Shown here: positions 14,604 to 25,032 of the stretch, in pieces
Layout of the letters: every line of letters begins with the position of its first letter
Position numbering within the stretch: position 1 is the stretch's first letter
Translations under genes and position numbers: made by a program
The notes under the pieces: model-generated
The model's database searches: none
What the model saw: only the letters and a program-made list of their open reading frames with translations
Told to the model about the DNA's origin: nothing
NCBI GenBank assembly: GCA_017355425.1
Contig: CP070233.1
Span: forward strand, 2,025,501-2,089,500
Length of the DNA: 64,000 nucleotides
Direction: 5' to 3'
From: Dolichospermum sp. DET69
GTDB lineage: Bacteria > Cyanobacteriota > Cyanobacteriia > Cyanobacteriales > Nostocaceae

Positions 14604-14634
14604 GATCCCCGACTTCTTTGAGAAGTCGGGGATC
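14604..14634. repeat. dispersed hairpin repeat (gatccccgacttctt family)
   Basis: A perfect 14-base stem gatccccgacttct with a short loop. Relatives with sequence changes, some compensated on both arms, are at 26484-26512, 27659-27689, 31633-31663 and 32902-32932. No T-run follows this copy, so it is not a standard terminator on either strand. Confidence 0.85.
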
Positions 14635-14683: not shown

Positions 14684-14771
14684 ATCACCGTGACGGTTTT
14701 GGTAACTATAAAGGATACAATACTTCAAATACACGGTAGTGGTAACTATATCTTTATAAAACGACGGTGAT
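14684..14771 (+). promoter_or_regulatory. candidate operator region of the CHAT/AAA gene
   Basis: Two perfect direct repeats of ggtaactata at 14701-14710 and 14741-14750, exactly 40 bases apart. They are framed by an inverted repeat: atcaccgt at 14684-14691 and acggtgat at 14764-14771, the latter overlapping the start codon. A related taactatatc lies at about 20048-20057, upstream of the Trypco1-like gene. Operator function is inference. Confidence 0.4.
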
Positions 14772-16422
14772 GAAAAAAATTCTTATTTTAACCGCTAACC
14801 CCACCAACACAAAACCGTTGCGTTTAAGTGAAGAAGTCAGGGAAATCAAAAGTGCTTGGGAGCGTTCCCAAAACCGTGAACAATTTATAATTATTGTGGA
14901 AGAAGCAGTCCGTCTTCAAGAATTTCGTCGTACCCTATTAGATCATAAGCCAGATATTGTGCATTTCTCAGGACATGGTGGAGGAGAACAGGGTTTAGCT
15001 TTAATGGCAGATAATGGAGAAGCCTTTTTAGTCAAAGTTGCTCCTTTAGCTAAATTGTTTAAAGCATTACAAGAAATCTTTTTTATTGATTGTGTTTTTC
15101 TCAATGCTTGTTATTCAGATGTACAAGCAGAAGATATTTATCCTTATGTTAATTATGTCGTCGGGATGAATCAAAAAATTGGTGATGAAGCCGCTAAACA
15201 ATTTGCTATTGGTTTCTACGATACTTTATTTGCAGGACAATCAATTAAAAGTGCTTTTGATTTAGGATGTAATGCGATTGAAATGGAAAATATTCCAGAG
15301 CATTTAACTCCGGTTTTGAGGACAAAAGATTCAACAACTAAAAAAGCTATTATTCAGGGTGTACCTGAGTCGAAATCTGAACCTATTCAACTAAGAGATA
15401 TTAATATTCCTTTTGAAAATTTAGATGGTCAAGTCCCCCTAAATTCTCCCTTTTATGTTGAACGTCCTCCCATTGAAGCTACCTGTTATACTGCTATTGT
15501 AAAACCTGGGGCATTAATTAGGATTAAAGCACCTCGACAAATGGGGAAAACTTCATTAATGAGTAGGATTTTAGATCAAGGAGAAAAGCAAGGTTATCGA
15601 ACAGGATTTATTAATTTATGGAGTCGAGAATTATTTAAAAATCTGGATAGTTTTTTAGAGTCTTTTTGTGCCAATGTCAGTTTAGAATTAGGGATTGAAG
15701 AAAAGATAGATCAATATTGGAAACCTCAGCGTTATAGCAGTCAAACTAATTGTACAAATTACTTCCAATCCTATCTTTTAAAAGAATTGCAACAGCCTGT
15801 AATTCTAGGATTAGATGAGGTAGATAGAATCTTTCAATATAGTGAAATCGCTGATGAATTTTTCACTATGTTACGTTCATGGCATGAAAAAGGCAAAAAT
15901 AATGAAACTTGGCAAAAACTGAGATTAGTTATTTCCCATTCTCAAGAAGTTTATATTTCTTTGGATGTGAATAAATCTCCTTTTAATGTGGGTTTACCAA
16001 TTGATTTAAATAAGTTTAGTTTAGCACAGGTTCAGGATTTAGTTAAACGACATGGGTTGCAATGGTCAGATACAGAAATTAATCAATTAATGGGGATGAT
16101 TGACGGTCATACTTATTTGGTGAGAACAGCATTATATCATATTGCCACTAACGACTTAACTTTAAAGCAATTTTTAGCAATTGCTCCCACTGAAGAAGGA
16201 TTATATGAAGACCATTTGTATCGTCATCTTTTAATTTTGGAAGAAAATAAACAACTAAAATCAGCCATGTTAAAATTAGTGAATAGTGATGATGCAGTTA
16301 CATTAGAACCAATTTATGCTTTTAAATTAAAAAGTATGGGATTAGCAGAATCAAAAGGTAATAAGGTAATTCCCCTGTGTAATTTGTATCGTATTTATTT
16401 TAGCGATCGCTTGCAAGATTAA
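14770..16422 (+). CDS. CHAT-domain (caspase-like) protease fused to an AAA-like NTPase
   Basis: Residues 1-180 form a CHAT (caspase HetF associated with TPR) domain with the expected dyad: His69 in VHFSGHGG and Cys114 in FLNACYSD. Residues about 205-550 are a cyanobacterial AAA-like/STAND-type NTPase, with a P-loop-like KAPRQMGKTSLM (252-263), a Walker-B-like ILGLDEVDRIF (344-354) and a winged-helix-like C-terminus. CHAT proteases are known effectors of regulated proteolysis or abortive-infection responses when fused to NTPase switches. Both CHAT active-site residues are present. GTG 14767 directly precedes the ATG and is an alternative start. It is followed, 148 bases on, by a second AAA-like gene on the same strand. 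Substrate and trigger are unknown. Confidence 0.85.
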   Translation: MKKILILTANPTNTKPLRLSEEVREIKSAWERSQNREQFIIIVEEAVRLQEFRRTLLDHKPDIVHFSGHGGGEQGLALMADNGEAFLVKVAPLAKLFKALQEIFFIDCVFLNACYSDVQAEDIYPYVNYVVGMNQKIGDEAAKQFAIGFYDTLFAGQSIKSAFDLGCNAIEMENIPEHLTPVLRTKDSTTKKAIIQGVPESKSEPIQLRDINIPFENLDGQVPLNSPFYVERPPIEATCYTAIVKPGALIRIKAPRQMGKTSLMSRILDQGEKQGYRTGFINLWSRELFKNLDSFLESFCANVSLELGIEEKIDQYWKPQRYSSQTNCTNYFQSYLLKELQQPVILGLDEVDRIFQYSEIADEFFTMLRSWHEKGKNNETWQKLRLVISHSQEVYISLDVNKSPFNVGLPIDLNKFSLAQVQDLVKRHGLQWSDTEINQLMGMIDGHTYLVRTALYHIATNDLTLKQFLAIAPTEEGLYEDHLYRHLLILEENKQLKSAMLKLVNSDDAVTLEPIYAFKLKSMGLAESKGNKVIPLCNLYRIYFSDRLQD

Positions 16423-16470
16423 TTGATGTCATTTAAAATAATGACAATTAACTAAATTTAACCACTGATA

Positions 16471-16557
16471 ATTGGTAATTGGTAATTGGTAATTGGTGAT
16501 AAAATCCCCATTCTCATCCTGTTTATCCTTTAATCCTGGAAATCCTGATTCAGACAG
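16471..16557. repeat. composite repeat: aattggt heptamers plus 'cctgattcagaca' core
   Basis: Four aattggt heptamers run into a degenerate segment ending aatcctgattcagacag. The same composite occurs in inverse orientation at 32991-33082. The open frame of the next gene extends through this repeat from TTG 16493, which shows that the extension is not real coding sequence. Confidence 0.8.
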
Positions 16558-16570
16558 TTTAGACATAAAA

Positions 16571-19318
16571 ATGGAAAATTTAAACTCAGTTAATTATGAA
16601 TATCAAGTAGGTGGTTCGCTCCCAGCTTCTGCTCCTACTTATGTTACCAGAAAAGCCGATAATGAACTATATCAAGCCATAAAAAAGGGAGAATTTTGTT
16701 ATGTTTTAAAAAACTCCCGACAAATGGGTAAATCTTCTTTAAGAGTTCAAACAATGAAACGGCTTAAAGAAGTAGATGGATTTGCTTGTGCTGCTATTGA
16801 TTTAACTGATATTGGTTCAGCCAATATTACTCCTTTACAATGGTATGCAGGAATTATTAATGAATTAATTAATACCTTTGAATTAAATGAAAAATGTGAT
16901 ATAGATAGTTGGTGGGATAAATATGACCAAGAATCTTTGTCTGCGGTTAATTTCTTTGGTAATTTTCTCCGAGATATTCTTTTAAAATATGTTGAATCAA
17001 ATATCGTTATTTTTATAGATGAAATTGATAGTATCATCAGTTTACAGTTTAATGTTGATGATTTTTTTGCTCTAATTCGCTCTTTTTATAATCGTCGAGT
17101 TGATAATATTGAATATAATCGTCTGAGTTTTGTATTATTAGGTGTAGCTACTCCCAGCGATTTAATTCAAGATAAAACTCGAACTCCTTTTAATATTGGT
17201 TATGGCGTAGAATTAACAGGTTTTACCTTTGCAGAATCTCAAGCATTAGCAAAGGGATTAAGTGTTAAAACAAATCAACCAGAAAAGTTATTAGAATTAA
17301 TTTTAAACTGGACTGGGGGACAACCTTTTTTAACGCAGAAAGTCTGTAATTTAGTTTTAAATTCTTCTGATTTATCTGAAGGAAATGAAGAAGCATGGTT
17401 AGAAAATTTAATCAGAACTAACATTATTGAAAATTGGCAAGCAAAAGATGAACCGGAACATTTACGCACCATTGAAAGACGGATTTTATTTGATGAACAA
17501 ATGGCAGGTGAATTATTAGATATTTATCAAAAGATTTATCAACAAGGGGAAGTAGTTACTCAGAATACTGGAGAGGAAGCAAAGTTACCGTTATCGGGTT
17601 TGGTGGTGAAAATAAATAATTATTTACAGATTTATAATCCCATTTATCGAGAAGTTTTTAATCAACAATGGATTGATAATCAATTAGCTGATTTACGTCC
17701 CTATTTTGAGTCTTTCAATGATTGGGTAAAATCAGATTATTCGCATAAGCACCTGTTAAAAGGTAAGATGTTAAAAGAAGCTACAGTTTGGGCAAAAGAT
17801 AAAAGATTAAGCTCTTTAGATAAACAGTATTTAGATGATTCTCAAAAATTAGAATATAAAAGAAATATTAAGAATATATTTGTGGTTTTCGCAATCGCAA
17901 GTGTTGCCACAGGGGTGGTAGTTGGACTTATCGGTGCATTTAGTTGGTATCAGTATAAATATGCTTTTTGTCCTATTGGAGAAAGAATAGAAGGGAGTGA
18001 TAGATGTGTTAGAAACATCAAAACTAGTGGTGAACAATCTAAAATATTTATCGATGATATAAATTTCCATCTGGATAAGGGAAGCGAATATTTTAAAAAA
18101 GGAGATTATCAAAATGCAGAGAAATTTTTTTATTTAGCTAAAGAGGCTAATCGTACTGACCCAATTCCCCAAATATATTTGAATAATACTAAAGCTAGGT
18201 TAGCAAGTCAAGCAGGGAAAGGAAAACCTTTAAAGCTGGCAGTTGTAGCTGGAATTGATTTTTACAAATCTACGTCTGAAGAAATTTTTATGGGTGTAGC
18301 TGATGCTCAAGATGAATTTAATAAGATTGGAGGAAAAAATGGCAGATTGCTAGAGATAGTTATTGCGAATGATGCTAATCAACCAGAAACATCAAAAAAA
18401 GTAGCAGAAAAGTTAGTTAATGAGTCAGATATTTTAGGAATTATTGGACATCATGCAAGTGAGAGTAGTGAGGTAGCAATACCTATTTACAGACGAAAAG
18501 GATTAGCAATAGTATCTCCTTCAAGTTCTAGCAGCAAATTGAAGGACGATGTATTTTTTCGAGTTATCCAAACTACAACAGAAGCAGCCAAACTTTATGC
18601 AAAGTATATCAAAAATACTTTACATTCAGATAGTATAGCAATTTTTTACGATCAGAAAGGTGTTTATAGTCAAAGTTTGCAAGAAGATTTTATAAAAGCT
18701 TTTGATGATTTAGGAGGAAAAGTTGATATTAATGATACTTCTGTTTTTGATCGGGAACAAACAAGTCCACCAGATGTTGATGCAGAAATTGATATAATGA
18801 TCTCAAACCAAATAAAAACAGTTTTTTTAATACCTGGTGTAAAAACAAATTCAATATTAAGAGCTTTTGCAAGAGCGAGTCAGGAAAAAACAAAAAAACT
18901 GAACATAGAAAACCTAAACATAATATTCCCTACGTCTGTTTTTGAACAGCCAACTTTAGATATAGGGGGTGATGCTGTTGAGGGTGCAAGTTTGGCCATA
19001 CCTTGTGTAAACAAAACATCTTTATATATGAAAGGTGCAATAAAAAGATGGCAACAAAAAAATATTTATTGGCGTACCATGACTGGATATGATGCAACCC
19101 AAGCATTTATAGGAGCTATTAATAAATCATCGAATGAACCGACAAGATCAGAAATTCTCAAGAATTTGAAAACTCTGACACTCCCTGTTGAAAAAACCTC
19201 TGGCTATGGATTAAATTGGTCAAAGGAAAATGGCTATTTGTATCAATCTAATATTAATAGTTCATATTGTATGTATAAGATTGAAAATGGTCAATTTAAA
19301 GAAGTTTTGGTTAAGTAG
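16571..19318 (+). CDS. membrane receptor: AAA-like NTPase, one TM helix, TPR-like linker, type-1 solute-binding domain
   Basis: 915 residues from ATG 16571. Residues 1-375 are an AAA-like domain of the same kind as the preceding gene, with [12 protein letters not shown] (47-58) and [11 protein letters not shown] (145-155). Residues 435-458 form a single transmembrane helix. A cysteine-containing segment (CPIGER) and a short TPR-like stretch ([20 protein letters not shown]) follow, then residues 554-915 resemble branched-chain-amino-acid-type periplasmic binding proteins ([40 protein letters not shown]). The architecture suggests a cytoplasmic NTPase controlled by an external ligand. The upstream in-frame TTG at 16493 lies within a dispersed repeat and is rejected. 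It probably works with the CHAT protease encoded just before it. Confidence 0.83.
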
Positions 19319-19370
19319 TCTACCAGAAACTTATCCAATTTATTCCACATTAGCGACAATCATTGATTTT

Positions 19371-19397
19371 GTTGGGTTTCACTGCGTTCAACCCAAC
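19371..19397. repeat. dispersed hairpin gttgggtt...aacccaac
   Basis: An imperfect hairpin with gttgggtt and aacccaac arms, at the 3' ends of two converging genes. Relatives occur near 4561, 27600 and 55798. It may terminate transcription from either side but lacks a T-run. Confidence 0.65.
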
Positions 19398-19694
19398 CTA
19401 CTGATCTGAAAATTGATTTTCTATATCTCTAGATTGATGAAAAATCCTCACAATTTCTAAACTTGCAGAATTTTGAGTATAGAATATAATATATGGCTTA
19501 ACAGGAAAACTACGAAGTCCTGTTTGTAGTTCGTCTCTTTTTGTTCCCATATTAGGAAATTGAGCTAACATCGGAAATTTATCAAGAATTTGTGCAATTT
19601 TTTGGTCTGCTAATATTTCATTTTGTTGAGCGAGATAAATCCAAATATCTTCTAAATCTTTCTCTGCTAGTTTGGAAATCCGAAAGTGATTCAT
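19398..19694 (-). CDS. RelE/ParE-family toxin
   Basis: A 98-residue ParE-type toxin: N-terminal FRISKLAEKDLEDIWIYLAQ, central FPNMGTKRDELQTGLRSFPV and the final strand VRIFHQSRDIEN. The family poisons gyrase or cleaves ribosome-bound mRNA; the central MGTKRDEL segment is typical of ParE-like members. Its start overlaps the stop of the antitoxin gene by 4 bases, the usual antitoxin-first coupled order. It lies between the AAA/solute-binding receptor and the Trypco1-like gene, on the opposite strand, so it is a separate transcription unit. Confidence 0.9.
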   Translation of the reverse strand: MNHFRISKLAEKDLEDIWIYLAQQNEILADQKIAQILDKFPMLAQFPNMGTKRDELQTGLRSFPVKPYIIFYTQNSASLEIVRIFHQSRDIENQFSDQ

Positions 19695-19984
19695 TCAGAT
19701 ATTTCTCCTTGTAGACGTTCCCGACCTCGTGCTTTAATTGAAGTTATGAGAGTAGATAAATTATTTTCATCGTATTCTGTGTATTCACCGTTTTGGAGTT
19801 GTTGAATACCTGCGGCTATATCCTGTTTTAAGGATTCAATATTTTGTGTTTTCTGGTGTTCAATTAGTCGAGAGTGTTGAATTTTTTCTACTAAGATTTG
19901 ATATTCTTCTTGAGAAAGTGAAAGGATAATTTGAGTGAGAGAGTCAAGAAGTCGAGTATTAATTGTAGAAATGAGTTGGTTCAT
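19691..19984 (-). CDS. antitoxin of the ParE-family toxin
   Basis: A 97-residue protein whose C-terminal part (DIAAGIQQLQNGEYTEYDENNL) matches the toxin-wrapping segment common in cyanobacterial ParD-like antitoxins. The N-terminal half is helical and may form the dimer/DNA-binding region, although no clear ribbon-helix-helix is seen. The next gene overlaps its stop by 4 bases. Autoregulation at its promoter, between 19985 and 20125, is likely for the family but not shown by the sequence. Confidence 0.82.
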   Translation of the reverse strand: MNQLISTINTRLLDSLTQIILSLSQEEYQILVEKIQHSRLIEHQKTQNIESLKQDIAAGIQQLQNGEYTEYDENNLSTLITSIKARGRERLQGEISE

Positions 19985-20125
19985 AAGGCAATAATGTTAA
20001 CAATTAGGTAATTGGTAGAATTATAACACAATCTCGTGGTAATATAATAACTATATCCTGGTATTGAGTCGCGCTTTGGTCGTGGTATTAGATGACTGCT
20101 ACATTTTAAAAGATAATTTACCTTT

Positions 20126-20521
20126 ATGTCACAACTAACACCAATTCAATTAGAAGACGGAACAATTATTTATATTGAAGCATCAGAAAACGTTGCTGTA
20201 TCTATTCCCCAACCTCCAAAAAATGAGAACCTAGATTTTCTAATTCCCACCCCTGAACAAGCAGACCGCAGTTTTGGCTTAGAAAAACTAAACGAAAAAC
20301 TGAATATTAAAGAACAGGGAGACAAACTCCAAAAAACTATTCAATCCTATTCAAAACATATTATTCAATCCTTCAAAGATTTAGCTTTAGCAGAAGTTTC
20401 TGAAGTTACCTTAGAATTTGGGGTGAATGTCGGAGGAATGACAGGAATCCCTTATATTGTTACAGGAGAAACAAGCAGTAATATTAAAATTACCGTTAAA
20501 TGTAAATTTAATCAGAAATAA
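20126..20521 (+). CDS. Trypco1 / CU044_2847-like protein
   Basis: A 131-residue protein with a beta-rich N-terminus (TPIQLEDGTIIYIEASE), a helical middle (about 60-90) and a C-terminal beta unit (VTLEFGVNVGGMTGIPYIV and NIKITVKC). This pattern, especially the EFGV strand, fits the trypsin-co-occurring domain 1 (Trypco1). In published surveys of bacterial NTP-dependent conflict systems, Trypco domains accompany trypsin-like or caspase-like proteases and STAND NTPases. Here it lies 0.8 kb past the AAA/solute-binding receptor and 3.7 kb past the CHAT protease, on the same strand. A shared taactatatc motif upstream hints at common control. Assignment by eye; no catalytic residues expected. Confidence 0.68.
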   Translation: MSQLTPIQLEDGTIIYIEASENVAVSIPQPPKNENLDFLIPTPEQADRSFGLEKLNEKLNIKEQGDKLQKTIQSYSKHIIQSFKDLALAEVSEVTLEFGVNVGGMTGIPYIVTGETSSNIKITVKCKFNQK

Positions 20522-20569: not shown

Positions 20570-20689
20570 TATTGTTGAATTAGTCTAGGAATTTTCGGTA
20601 TTATAGTGTTTAGAGAATGTTGTTTATTTTAGGCATTTACAAAATATTCTTTTTCACTTATCATCATAATCCTTATAATCCTTAATTCT

Positions 20690-21620
20690 GCCACAATCAA
20701 ATAATATGCCAATAACAATCCTGCAAATCCTCAAATCTTGGACATCCTGATTCAGACAAAATATTCACTTAATTATGCCACAATCAAATAATATGCCAAT
20801 AACAATCCTGCAAATCCTCAAATCCTGGACATCCTGATTCAGACAAAATATTCACTTAATTCTGCCACAATCAAATAATATGCCAATAACAATCCTGCAA
20901 ATCCTCAAATCCTGGAAATCCTGATTCAGACAAAATATTCACTTAATTCTGCCACAATCAAATAATATGCCAATAACAATCCTGCAAATCCTCAAATCCT
21001 GGAAATCCTGATTCAGACAAAATATTCACTTAATTCTGCCACAATCAAATAATATGCCAATAACAATCCTGCAAATCCTCAAATCCTGGAAATCCTGATT
21101 CAGACAAAATATTCACTTAATTCTGCCACAATCAAATAATATGCCAATAACAATCCTGCAAATCCTCAAATCCTGGAAATCCTGATTCAGACAAAATATT
21201 CACTTAATTCTGCCACAATCAAATAATATGCCAATAACAATCCTGCAAATCCTCAAATCCTGGAAATCCTGATTCAGACAAAATATTCACTTAATTCTGT
21301 CACAATCAAACAATACAGCAATTCTCGCTCTAATGAAATACAATGGAGGGCGCAGTCCCTGCGCCCCTACGTGCCACAATCAAACAATATCCAAATAACA
21401 ATCCTGCAAATCCTCAAATCCTGGACATCCTGATTCAGACAAAATATTCACTTAATTCTGCCACAATCAAACAATATCCCAATAACAATCCTGCAAATCC
21501 TCAAATCCTGGACATCCTGATTCAGACAAAATATCCACTTAATTCTGTCACAATCAAACAATATCCCAATAAAAATCCTGCAAATCCTCAAATCCCGGAC
21601 ATCCTGATTCAGACAAAAAA
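20690..21620. repeat. tandem array of 87-base repeats, about ten units
   Basis: Units begin gccacaatcaaa at 20690, 20777, 20864, 20951, 21038, 21125 and 21212, then a disrupted unit at 21299, then 21373, 21460 and 21547. The spacing is exactly 87 bases wherever the unit is complete. Each unit ends with the dispersed core cctgattcagacaaaat. Units are nearly identical, without CRISPR-like variable spacers. One unit is interrupted by a 57-base element (21315-21371). The reading frame across the right half (21343-21690) is an artefact of the repeats. The array ends at the prk terminator. Confidence 0.95.
21315..21371. mobile_element. 57-base MITE-like element, copy 1
   Basis: This 57-base block matches 28592-28648 in reverse orientation with a single difference, in the loop of its gggcgcag...ctgcgccc hairpin. 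Here it interrupts one unit of the 87-base array, so it inserted after the array formed or was captured during array turnover. It has no coding capacity. Confidence 0.85.

Positions 21621-22674: not shown

Positions 22675-25032
<2,358 letters not shown>

What the first reader, a model, noticed from the sequence alone, without database searches (positions are those of the whole stretch)
14684..20521. Candidate receptor-protease conflict/signalling island: CHAT-AAA, AAA-TM-solute-binding receptor, Trypco1-like protein
Two adjacent genes share an AAA-like NTPase domain with the same P-loop style ([16 protein letters not shown]). One NTPase is fused to a CHAT protease with an intact His69/Cys114 dyad. 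The other is tethered by a single membrane helix to a periplasmic type-1 solute-binding domain. A Trypco1-like protein, a domain reported with proteases and NTPase switches in bacterial conflict systems, follows on the same strand. An attractive model is that an extracellular ligand is sensed by the binding domain, the AAA domains co-assemble, and the caspase-like protease is released. The combination of an ABC-type binding domain with a CHAT effector through matched AAA domains is not one I know as a described system.
Basis: partly seen in the sequence, partly recalled or inferred. Interest (0 to 1): 0.78.

Follow-up and report, generated by a model that had tools for sequence, protein, structure and literature searches.

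The report
Two-gene AAA receptor-protease pair
Two neighbouring cyanobacterial genes encode a membrane sensor and a protease that carry related but distinct ATPase domains, and the same two-part layout, with sensors and effectors exchanged, recurs in many cyanobacteria, which points to a modular signalling or self-defence system that I have not found described.

Summary
Gene A (14770-16422) is CHAT protease + AAA_35; gene B (16571-19318) is AAA_35 + membrane helix + type-1 binding domain; a Trypco1 gene follows. An unmentioned toxin-antitoxin pair lies between.

The grouping is not chance. AAA_35 proteins here split into two clades, A (soluble, interchangeable effectors) and B (mostly membrane-anchored, interchangeable sensors), usually encoded together. 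Outside the own order, 41 of 72 genomes have both, 28 neither, 3 only one; 76 of 97 B genes have an A within 2.5 kb. Cognate A and B domains co-diverge even among paralogues within genomes; one natural protein fuses B, a cyclase and A. Effectors include CHAT, TIR, trypsin, patatin, cyclases, kinase and EAD domains; sensors include binding proteins, CHASE2, GUN4, WD40 and CAP. At this very locus two relatives carry GUN4 instead of the binding domain. CHAT-A with a binding-domain B recurs in two other genera. Trypco1 shares the island's gain and loss within the genus.

Best reading: a bipartite transmembrane receptor-effector system in which ligand binding outside licenses the protease inside. 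Pairing is well supported; contact, ligand, activation and a conflict role are inferred. No structure could be computed.

The parts
14770..16422 (+). Gene A: CHAT protease + AAA_35 (clade A), soluble effector subunit
   Evidence: at a hydropathy threshold of 1.8, 0 of 81 A proteins have a helix-like window
14791..15255 (+). CHAT domain; His69 codon 14974-14976, Cys114 codon 15109-15111
   Evidence: Pfam PF12770 41.2 bits; both residues in 29/29 CHAT-type A
15424..16404 (+). AAA_35 domain of A (Walker A APRQMGKTS, Walker B LGLDEVD)
   Evidence: PF14516 456 bits; Walker-B Glu in 48/77 and Asp in 57/77 A domains
16571..19318 (+). Gene B: AAA_35 (clade B) + membrane helix + TPR-like linker + type-1 solute-binding domain, receptor subunit
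16613..17662 (+). AAA_35 domain of B (Walker [10 protein letters not shown], Walker B FIDEID)
   Evidence: PF14516 118 bits; Walker-B Asp 114/115, Glu 115/115
17876..17932 (+). transmembrane helix
   Evidence: hydropathy; at threshold 1.8, 90 of 106 B proteins have such a window after AAA_35, against 1 of 106 inside the AAA domain; of the 97 found at 1.5, 78 have more K/R on the AAA side, 13 equal, 6 fewer
18287..19192 (+). Peripla_BP_6 (LivJ-like) ligand-binding domain
   Evidence: PF13458 97 bits; nearest solved chain 1z15, Leu/Ile/Val-binding protein, 8.3e-12
20126..20521 (+). Trypco1 / CU044_2847 family protein, probable island member
   Evidence: PF19493 59.8 bits; the only match in this genome
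19398..19694 (-). ParE-family toxin, probable passenger (found at this locus in L017, not in L018-L020)
   Evidence: PF05016 73 bits
19691..19984 (-). presumed antitoxin of the ParE toxin
   Evidence: overlaps the ParE start; only a weak RelB/ParD hit, 14 bits against 60
14700..14750 (+). two copies of TGGTAACTATA upstream of gene A, possible control element, unproven
   Evidence: 2 exact copies 40 bp apart; GGTAACTATA twice also in L018, once in L017 and L019, none in L020; not significant over the window

Best explanation
The island encodes one member of a bipartite, transmembrane AAA_35 receptor-effector system. B sits in the inner membrane: its LivJ-like domain samples a small (probably amino-acid-like) ligand in the periplasm, and its cytoplasmic AAA_35 domain keeps all ATPase motifs. 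A is soluble and binds B through its own, distinct AAA_35 domain. A ligand-induced change in B alters the nucleotide-dependent A-B complex and switches on the CHAT protease, which then cleaves cell proteins. Trypco1 probably acts as an accessory or regulator of the caspase-like enzyme. Shown here: the domains, the recurrent pairing, co-divergence of cognate A and B, modular exchange of sensors and effectors, a topology signal, and shared gain and loss of the island in the genus. Inferred: physical contact, direction of signalling, ligand class, proteolysis, and the outcome for the cell (regulated cell death, dormancy or regulated cleavage).
For: Two clades without overlap in score: A proteins score at least 196 with the A profile and at most 96 with the B profile; B at least 443 and at most 112 (196 proteins). 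Co-occurrence outside the own order: 72 genomes, 41 both, 1 A only, 2 B only, 28 neither; counts r 0.96, 0.93 after removing genome size. Adjacency: 76 of 97 B there (66 in the order A then B), with no overlap between A and B matches; 69 of 108 B in the relatives set against 3.4 expected under a generous null. Order is A then B in 61 of 74 close pairs of the collected set; 10 of those 61 gaps are 0 or negative. Co-divergence: Mantel r 0.83 over 72 pairs; shuffling partners only within genomes gives mean 0.40, maximum 0.65, 0 of 2000 reach it. Natural fusion B-AAA_35 + cyclase + A-AAA_35 in one 904-aa chain. Sensor exchange at this locus: SBP in window, L017, L018; GUN4 in L019, L020, with A (92-97%) and the AAA part of B conserved. 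Chimera L021: first 200 aa of B 92-98% like L023, SBP part 82-100% like the window; its A carries a hydrolase-like domain. Domains known as extracytoplasmic elsewhere (CHASE2, PBP_like_2, CAP, SBP) occur at the C-terminal, sensor end of B.
Against: No interaction, activity or ligand was measured, and no structure was obtained. In the collected set 41 of 115 B genes have no A within 2.5 kb; 37 of 108 have none on the same strand in the fetched stretch. In the class-level set 21 of 97 B and 25 of 101 A genes are unpartnered, and 10 of the 76 partnered B are on the opposite strand to their A. So partners can be distant or dispensable, apart from contig ends. The SBP-like receptor L159 has no A nearby. 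Many A proteins carry DNA-binding-like or GGDEF domains, which fits ordinary signalling better than conflict. Linkage alone can contribute to co-divergence. WD40 and GUN4 are usually regarded as intracellular, which sits uneasily with a place after the helix. In the window A and B are 148 bp apart from stop to likely start, so translational coupling is not seen here.
Confidence: 0.6

Rival explanations
1. The pair is a real receptor-effector unit but a house-keeping signalling device: it reads nutrient or metabolite levels and the CHAT domain makes limited, non-lethal regulatory cuts.
For: Other A outputs are GGDEF (10), cyclase, kinase and DNA-binding-like domains; GUN4, GAF and CHASE2 sensors read metabolic or environmental cues; the SBP is LivJ-like. 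The own-genome paralogue is AAA_35-GGDEF next to AAA_35-TM-WD40.
Against: CHAT, TIR, trypsin, patatin and EAD modules overlap with the effector set of conflict systems (PMC7159879 passages, in part recalled); the island is patchy in the genus, with intact, decayed and empty sites, more like a dispensable defence locus.
Confidence: 0.4
2. B restrains A: the membrane ATPase holds the protease inactive and loss or damage of B, rather than ligand binding, releases it (a guard or toxin-antitoxin-like arrangement).
For: Near one-to-one gene numbers (34 of 44 genomes with any have equal A and B counts); joint decay of A and B in L170.
Against: Unpartnered A genes exist: 25 of 101, and L168 keeps fragments of A without B. 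Interchangeable ligand-binding sensors suggest positive sensing.
Confidence: 0.2
3. The genes are adjacent by chance or only because of an old tandem duplication, without joint function.
For: A and B are homologous AAA_35 domains; two B genes share a stretch in 6 of the 102 loci examined.
Against:: pairing, co-divergence, presence-absence match and a natural fusion. Two A genes without matching B genes share a stretch only in L076, where one is a 119-aa fragment.
Confidence: 0.03
4. Trypco1 is only a chromosomal neighbour and not part of the system.
For: It is separated from B by the toxin-antitoxin pair; of 65 Trypco1 matches in the relatives set only those at the window locus (5 intact genomes, plus the decayed G009 copy) and 3 others lie beside A or B genes listed, lists that are capped.
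Against: Intact in 5 of 5 genomes with the intact pair; partial in G009 and G002 and not found at the decayed G010 site or the three empty sites. Trypco1 directly precedes A in L026, L037 and the Nostoc plasmid L163; Trypco1 genes also lie beside C14-nSTAND1 genes in L151, L157 and L162.
Confidence: 0.3

Closest known systems
NTP-dependent ternary conflict systems (VMAP/vWA-MoxR, iSTAND) of Kaur et al. 2020, PMC7159879
   Same: NTPase switch core with exchangeable effectors (trypsin, caspase, TIR, cyclases, EADs), Trypco1 neighbours, presence in cyanobacteria (passages read).
   Different: No vWA, MoxR or VMAP among the proteins scanned. Here the core is two AAA_35 clades, one of them membrane-anchored. 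A term search for AAA_35 in that paper's main text finds none.
Single-chain nSTAND1 proteins of cyanobacteria (caspase or trypsin - nSTAND1 - WD40 or pentapeptide)
   Same: Same effectors and sensors and a Trypco1 neighbour (L142, L151, L157); Gloeothece PCC 7822 has C14-nSTAND1 overlapping a SBP gene, and the two together match B from just before the helix onward at 41.8%.
   Different: Effector, NTPase and sensor lie on one chain, or on what looks like one gene split in two, whereas here two different NTPases share the work.
Single-chain cyanobacterial metacaspases with ANF-receptor, CHASE2, GUN4 or WD40 (PMC2853523, PMC3501461; passages)
   Same: Caspase-fold enzyme linked to an extracellular ligand-binding domain.
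   Different: No AAA_35 pair mentioned in the passages seen; one polypeptide; metacaspase (C14) rather than CHAT.
Histidine kinase - response regulator two-component systems (recalled)
   Same: Two genes, one membrane sensor with variable input, one soluble partner with variable output.
   Different: The coupling modules are paired AAA domains, not a phosphorelay; no histidine kinase or receiver domain in A or B of the window.

Membership tests
AAA_35 (PF14516) | match over the curated cut-off of 27 bits | tested here: met
   456 and 118 bits
CHAT proteases (PF12770) | match over cut-off and His/Cys dyad | tested here: met
   41.2 against 24 bits; His69/Cys114, 29 of 29 CHAT-type A
CHAT proteases (PF12770) | proteolytic activity | not tested
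   needs experiment
Type-1 solute-binding proteins | Peripla_BP_6 match over cut-off | tested here: met
   97 against 31.7 bits; LivJ nearest in PDB
ABC importer component | permease and ATPase genes next door | tested here: not met
   none among the 8 proteins scanned with Pfam (A, B, Trypco1, the toxin-antitoxin pair and 3 flanking genes); the rest of the window was not scanned
VMAP/vWA-MoxR ternary system | MoxR, vWA and VMAP genes together | tested here: not met
   none among the same 8 proteins; more distant genes not scanned
STAND NTPases | match to an nSTAND/NACHT/NB-ARC family over cut-off | tested here: not met
   the NTPase parts of A and B match only AAA_35 over cut-off; AAA_22, ATPase_2 and others stay below
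STAND NTPases | C-terminal winged helix in the fold | not testable with these tools
   structure prediction was interrupted and then switched off; no solved AAA_35 relative found by sequence
Trypco1 (PF19493) | match over cut-off 24.6 bits | tested here: met
   59.8 bits
Trypco1 (PF19493) | trypsin-like gene next door | tested here: not met
   the protease here is CHAT; 11 of 20 Trypco1 loci fetched elsewhere have a trypsin-like neighbour (10, L159)
Known anti-phage system (PADLOC-DB 2.0.0) | complete set of models of one system | tested here: not met
   model 'chat' (3.3e-16) for A; all other hits weaker than 0.007; none for Trypco1
Proposed AAA_35 A+B pair (this report) | clade A gene and clade B gene within 2.5 kb | tested here: met
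Proposed AAA_35 A+B pair (this report) | physical A-B complex with ligand-dependent effector | not tested
   needs experiment

The most novel reading that the evidence does not exclude
AAA_35 pairs are a previously unrecognised, widespread class of bacterial transmembrane signalling: two-part receptors in which paired AAA ATPases, instead of a phosphorelay, couple any extracytoplasmic or metabolic sensor to any effector, including caspase-like, TIR, trypsin and patatin death effectors. The window is a ligand-gated protease receptor of this class.
Probability: 0.5. Interest if true: 0.87.

Novelty: new variant of a known kind. Interest (0 to 1): 0.74.

Why it matters
If true, it gives a function to a large, little-described cyanobacterial family (AAA_35) and a simple rule for reading it: find the pair, then read the sensor from B and the output from A. 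It would supply a bacterial parallel to cell-surface death receptors, because an extracytoplasmic ligand-binding domain would control a caspase-fold enzyme through a separate NTPase partner. Natural sensor swaps at one locus make the logic directly testable by domain exchange in laboratory strains.

Tried and rejected
Chance adjacency: rejected. Toxin-antitoxin as part of the unit: rejected as unnecessary; at this locus it is seen in the window and L017 and not in L018-L020, while a near-identical copy lies beside B at another locus in L030 and L021. Transporter component: rejected, no permease or ATPase among the proteins scanned. Reading the shared P-loop as a sign of a close match: rejected, the two domains are about 25% identical and of different clades. 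L058 was flagged as a possible A-B fusion by script; I rejected it because that protein is B-type overall and runs to a contig end. My working label 'GerE-like' for the roughly 110-aa N-terminus of A proteins of the L059/L031 type is not supported by Pfam; of those scanned only L092 has a GerE hit over cut-off, and L071 resembles it by eye. I call the others an unassigned HTH-like N-terminus. 'Hydrolase' on the L021 type rests on sub-threshold Pfam hits (Abhydrolase_6 24.7 bits, cut-off 26.3), and the HTH of L097 is also below cut-off. My first statement that no A protein has a helix used a stricter threshold (1.8) than for B (1.5); at 1.5 it is 11 of 81 A, 97 of 106 B and 12 of 106 B inside the AAA domain; at 1.8 it is 0, 90 and 1. 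The genome-contig scan with the whole receptor gave only 5 loci. The SBP search over 388 genomes scored at most 3 candidates per genome, so SBP receptors are undercounted. TGGTAACTATA as a control element: not significant in the window (4 matches, mean 1.7 expected, 10 of 100 shuffles reach 4).
Full report
What is there. A ParE-type toxin and its presumed antitoxin lie on the other strand between B and Trypco1. The CHAT dyad His69/Cys114 is intact, and is present in all 29 CHAT-type A proteins collected.

A second pair in the same genome. AAA_35 has four proteins over the cut-off in this genome and they form two adjacent pairs (of six listed matches two are pieces of one protein and one is below the cut-off). 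The second pair is AAA_35-GGDEF followed by AAA_35-TM-WD40. That suggested a rule: one gene carries an output, the other a membrane sensor.

Testing the rule in relatives. In the 108 B genes of 300 aa or more, 42 have an A directly upstream within 300 bp and 37 have no A on the same strand in the stretch. After adding loci L120-L141 the set holds 81 A and 115 B proteins, whose scores with the two profiles do not overlap. Of the 115 B genes, 74 have an A within 2.5 kb, 61 of them in the order A then B, 7 in the order B then A, 5 divergent and 1 convergent. For the relatives the count is 69 of 108 against 3.4 expected when the family count is doubled. The 8 B genes with a large N-terminal fusion and nothing after the AAA domain all lack an A.

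Independent replicate. In 77 genomes drawn from the class I searched A and B domains separately at E <= 1e-40 and dropped the 5 genomes of the own order, the own genome included, before counting. Of the remaining 72, 41 have both, 1 only A, 2 only B and 28 neither. Counts correlate at 0.96, and 0.93 with genome size removed; in the 38 genomes of 4-6 Mb the table is 26, 1, 1, 10. 76 of 97 B genes have an A within 2.5 kb: 66 in the order A then B, 10 on opposite strands. No A match overlaps a B match.

Co-divergence and fusion. Across 72 pairs, distances between A domains and between B domains correlate at 0.83. Shuffling partners only among pairs of the same genome gives a mean of 0.40 and a maximum of 0.65 in 2000 trials. 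One natural protein of 904 aa (L176:3218-5932) holds a B-type AAA_35, a nucleotide cyclase and an A-type AAA_35. Together these make joint function very likely, although linkage can contribute to the first.

Modular inputs and outputs. A proteins carry CHAT (29 of 81), CHAT with TIR or cyclase, trypsin, a hydrolase-like domain (below Pfam cut-offs), GGDEF, Ser/Thr kinase, patatin, EAD1, EAD4, TIR with or without GerE, and HTH-like N-termini. By profiles built here, B proteins carry WD40 (55 of 115), GUN4 (16), SBP (10), CHASE2 (6), GAF (2) and CHAT (1); Pfam adds PBP_like_2 (L058) and CAP (L121), and class-level or plasmid cases add FGE-sulfatase, TPR and amidase. CHAT-bearing A genes are partners of 6 of 9 SBP, 12 of 15 GUN4 and 9 of 34 WD40 receptors (not corrected for relatedness). 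A helix-like window follows AAA_35 in 90 of 106 B at a threshold of 1.8, against 0 of 81 A proteins anywhere and 1 of 106 B inside the AAA domain; at 1.5 the numbers are 97, 11 and 12. Of the 97, positive charge is higher on the AAA side in 78, equal in 13 and lower in 6. B keeps Walker B in nearly all cases, while A keeps the Glu in 48 of 77, so B is probably the working ATPase and A a nucleotide-binding responder; this is inference.

Exchange at one locus. In L017-L020 the flanking metK and prk genes, A (92-97%) and Trypco1 (87-99%) are conserved, but B ends in SBP in the window, L017 and L018 and in GUN4 in L019 and L020; identity falls just after the AAA domain. In L021 (D. circinale) the first 200 aa of B match L023, a GUN4 receptor at another locus, at 92-98%, while the SBP part matches the window at 82-100%; its A carries the hydrolase-like domain.

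Ten AAA_35-SBP receptors were collected. Nine have an A within 2.5 kb, six of these with CHAT: the window, L017 and L018 (one locus), L127 and L128 (one other genus) and L132 (another genus). L021 has the hydrolase-like A, L097 an HTH-like A, L130 an EAD4-bearing A, and L131 is on a 4.2-kb contig. L159 ends in an SBP-like domain that my profile finds (77 bits) but Pfam does not; it has no A in the stretch, but Trypco1 and a stand-alone trypsin-like gene directly upstream.

The island comes and goes. Of 16 genus members (loci read), 5 have intact A, B and Trypco1; G009 has remnants of all three; G010 has fragments of A and no hit to B or Trypco1; G002 has a partial Trypco1 near metK with no A or B hit between; G013, G014 and G012 have metK and prk about 180, 220 and 1,080 bp apart with none of the three; in G003, G007, G011 and G015 metK was not found beside prk in the stretch taken; G001 ends at a contig edge. 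Trypco1 therefore shares the fate of the pair at this locus. Of 20 Trypco1 loci fetched from the relatives (of 65 matches), 11 have a trypsin-like neighbour. Trypco1 directly precedes A in L026, L037 and the Nostoc ATCC 53789 plasmid, where A is trypsin-TIR-AAA_35 and B ends in WD40 and amidase, and it lies beside C14-nSTAND1 genes in L151, L157 and Gloeothece PCC 7822.

Independent collection. In PLSDB plasmids, tblastn with B and with A lists adjacent pairs in named strains such as Nostoc sp. ATCC 53789, Tolypothrix PCC 7601 and Crinalium epipsammum (25 of 92 and 25 of 99 records listed).

Mechanism. The anatomy supports a membrane receptor (B) coupled through paired AAA domains to a soluble effector (A). 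The ligand is unknown; LivJ is the nearest solved relative, so an amino-acid-like compound is a reasonable guess. Whether activation kills the cell, arrests it or makes regulatory cuts is open. No structure was obtained and no solved AAA_35 relative was found by sequence.

Literature. Searches of the held library gave no description of paired AAA_35 proteins in their listings. I read passages found by term, not whole texts, of PMC7159879, PMC10907252, PMC8195603, PMC2853523, PMC3501461 and PMC7517822. They describe ternary NTPase conflict systems, Trypco1, GUN4 as a cyanobacterial sensor, and single-chain metacaspases with ANF-receptor or CHASE2. Most subscription papers are not held, so absence is not proof.

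Noticed in passing
window 19398-19984 (-): ParE toxin with presumed antitoxin between B and Trypco1; near-identical copies lie beside B at another locus in L030 and L021.
   Followed up: partly
window 20681-21618; similar unit at about 16515-16560: Tandem array of an 87-bp unit, 10.9 copies; part of a similar unit lies just before the start of B (by eye).
   Followed up: no
window 23809-24001: Four copies of a 48-bp in-frame repeat in the 491-aa reading frame 23557-25032, which looks like ferredoxin-NADP reductase (name recalled); the syntenic relatives are 36-43 aa shorter.
   Followed up: no
window 14604-14634: Inverted repeat GATCCCCGACTTCTTTGAGAAGTCGGGGATC between metK and A; also upstream of A in L019, not in the 260 bp shown for L017.
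   Followed up: no
L015:6395-11469 (own genome G000:C1, about 1.60 Mb): Second AAA_35 pair: AAA_35-GGDEF followed by AAA_35-TM-WD40, with TnpB-like and serine-recombinase-like genes next to it (names by eye).
   Followed up: partly
L176:3218-5932: Natural fusion of B-type AAA_35, nucleotide cyclase and A-type AAA_35 in one 904-aa protein.
   Followed up: yes
L122-L125, L129, L134: Parallel arrays of other STAND/ATPase_2-like NTPases fused to Peripla_BP_6, as tandem pairs or with two further NTPase genes.
   Followed up: partly
L121:7994-12106: Patatin-AAA_35 directly followed by AAA_35 with a CAP/SCP domain.
   Followed up: partly
L159:3980-7690: Trypco1, a stand-alone trypsin-like gene and an AAA_35 receptor with SBP-like end in a row, without an A gene.
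   Followed up: partly
L162:2015-5604 (Gloeothece verrucosa PCC 7822 plasmid): C14 caspase-nSTAND1 overlapping a SBP gene, with a divergent Trypco1 gene; looks like one gene split in two.
   Followed up: partly
L184:986-17896: Four B genes behind one HTH-type A gene on one strand in a genome of the own order.
   Followed up: no
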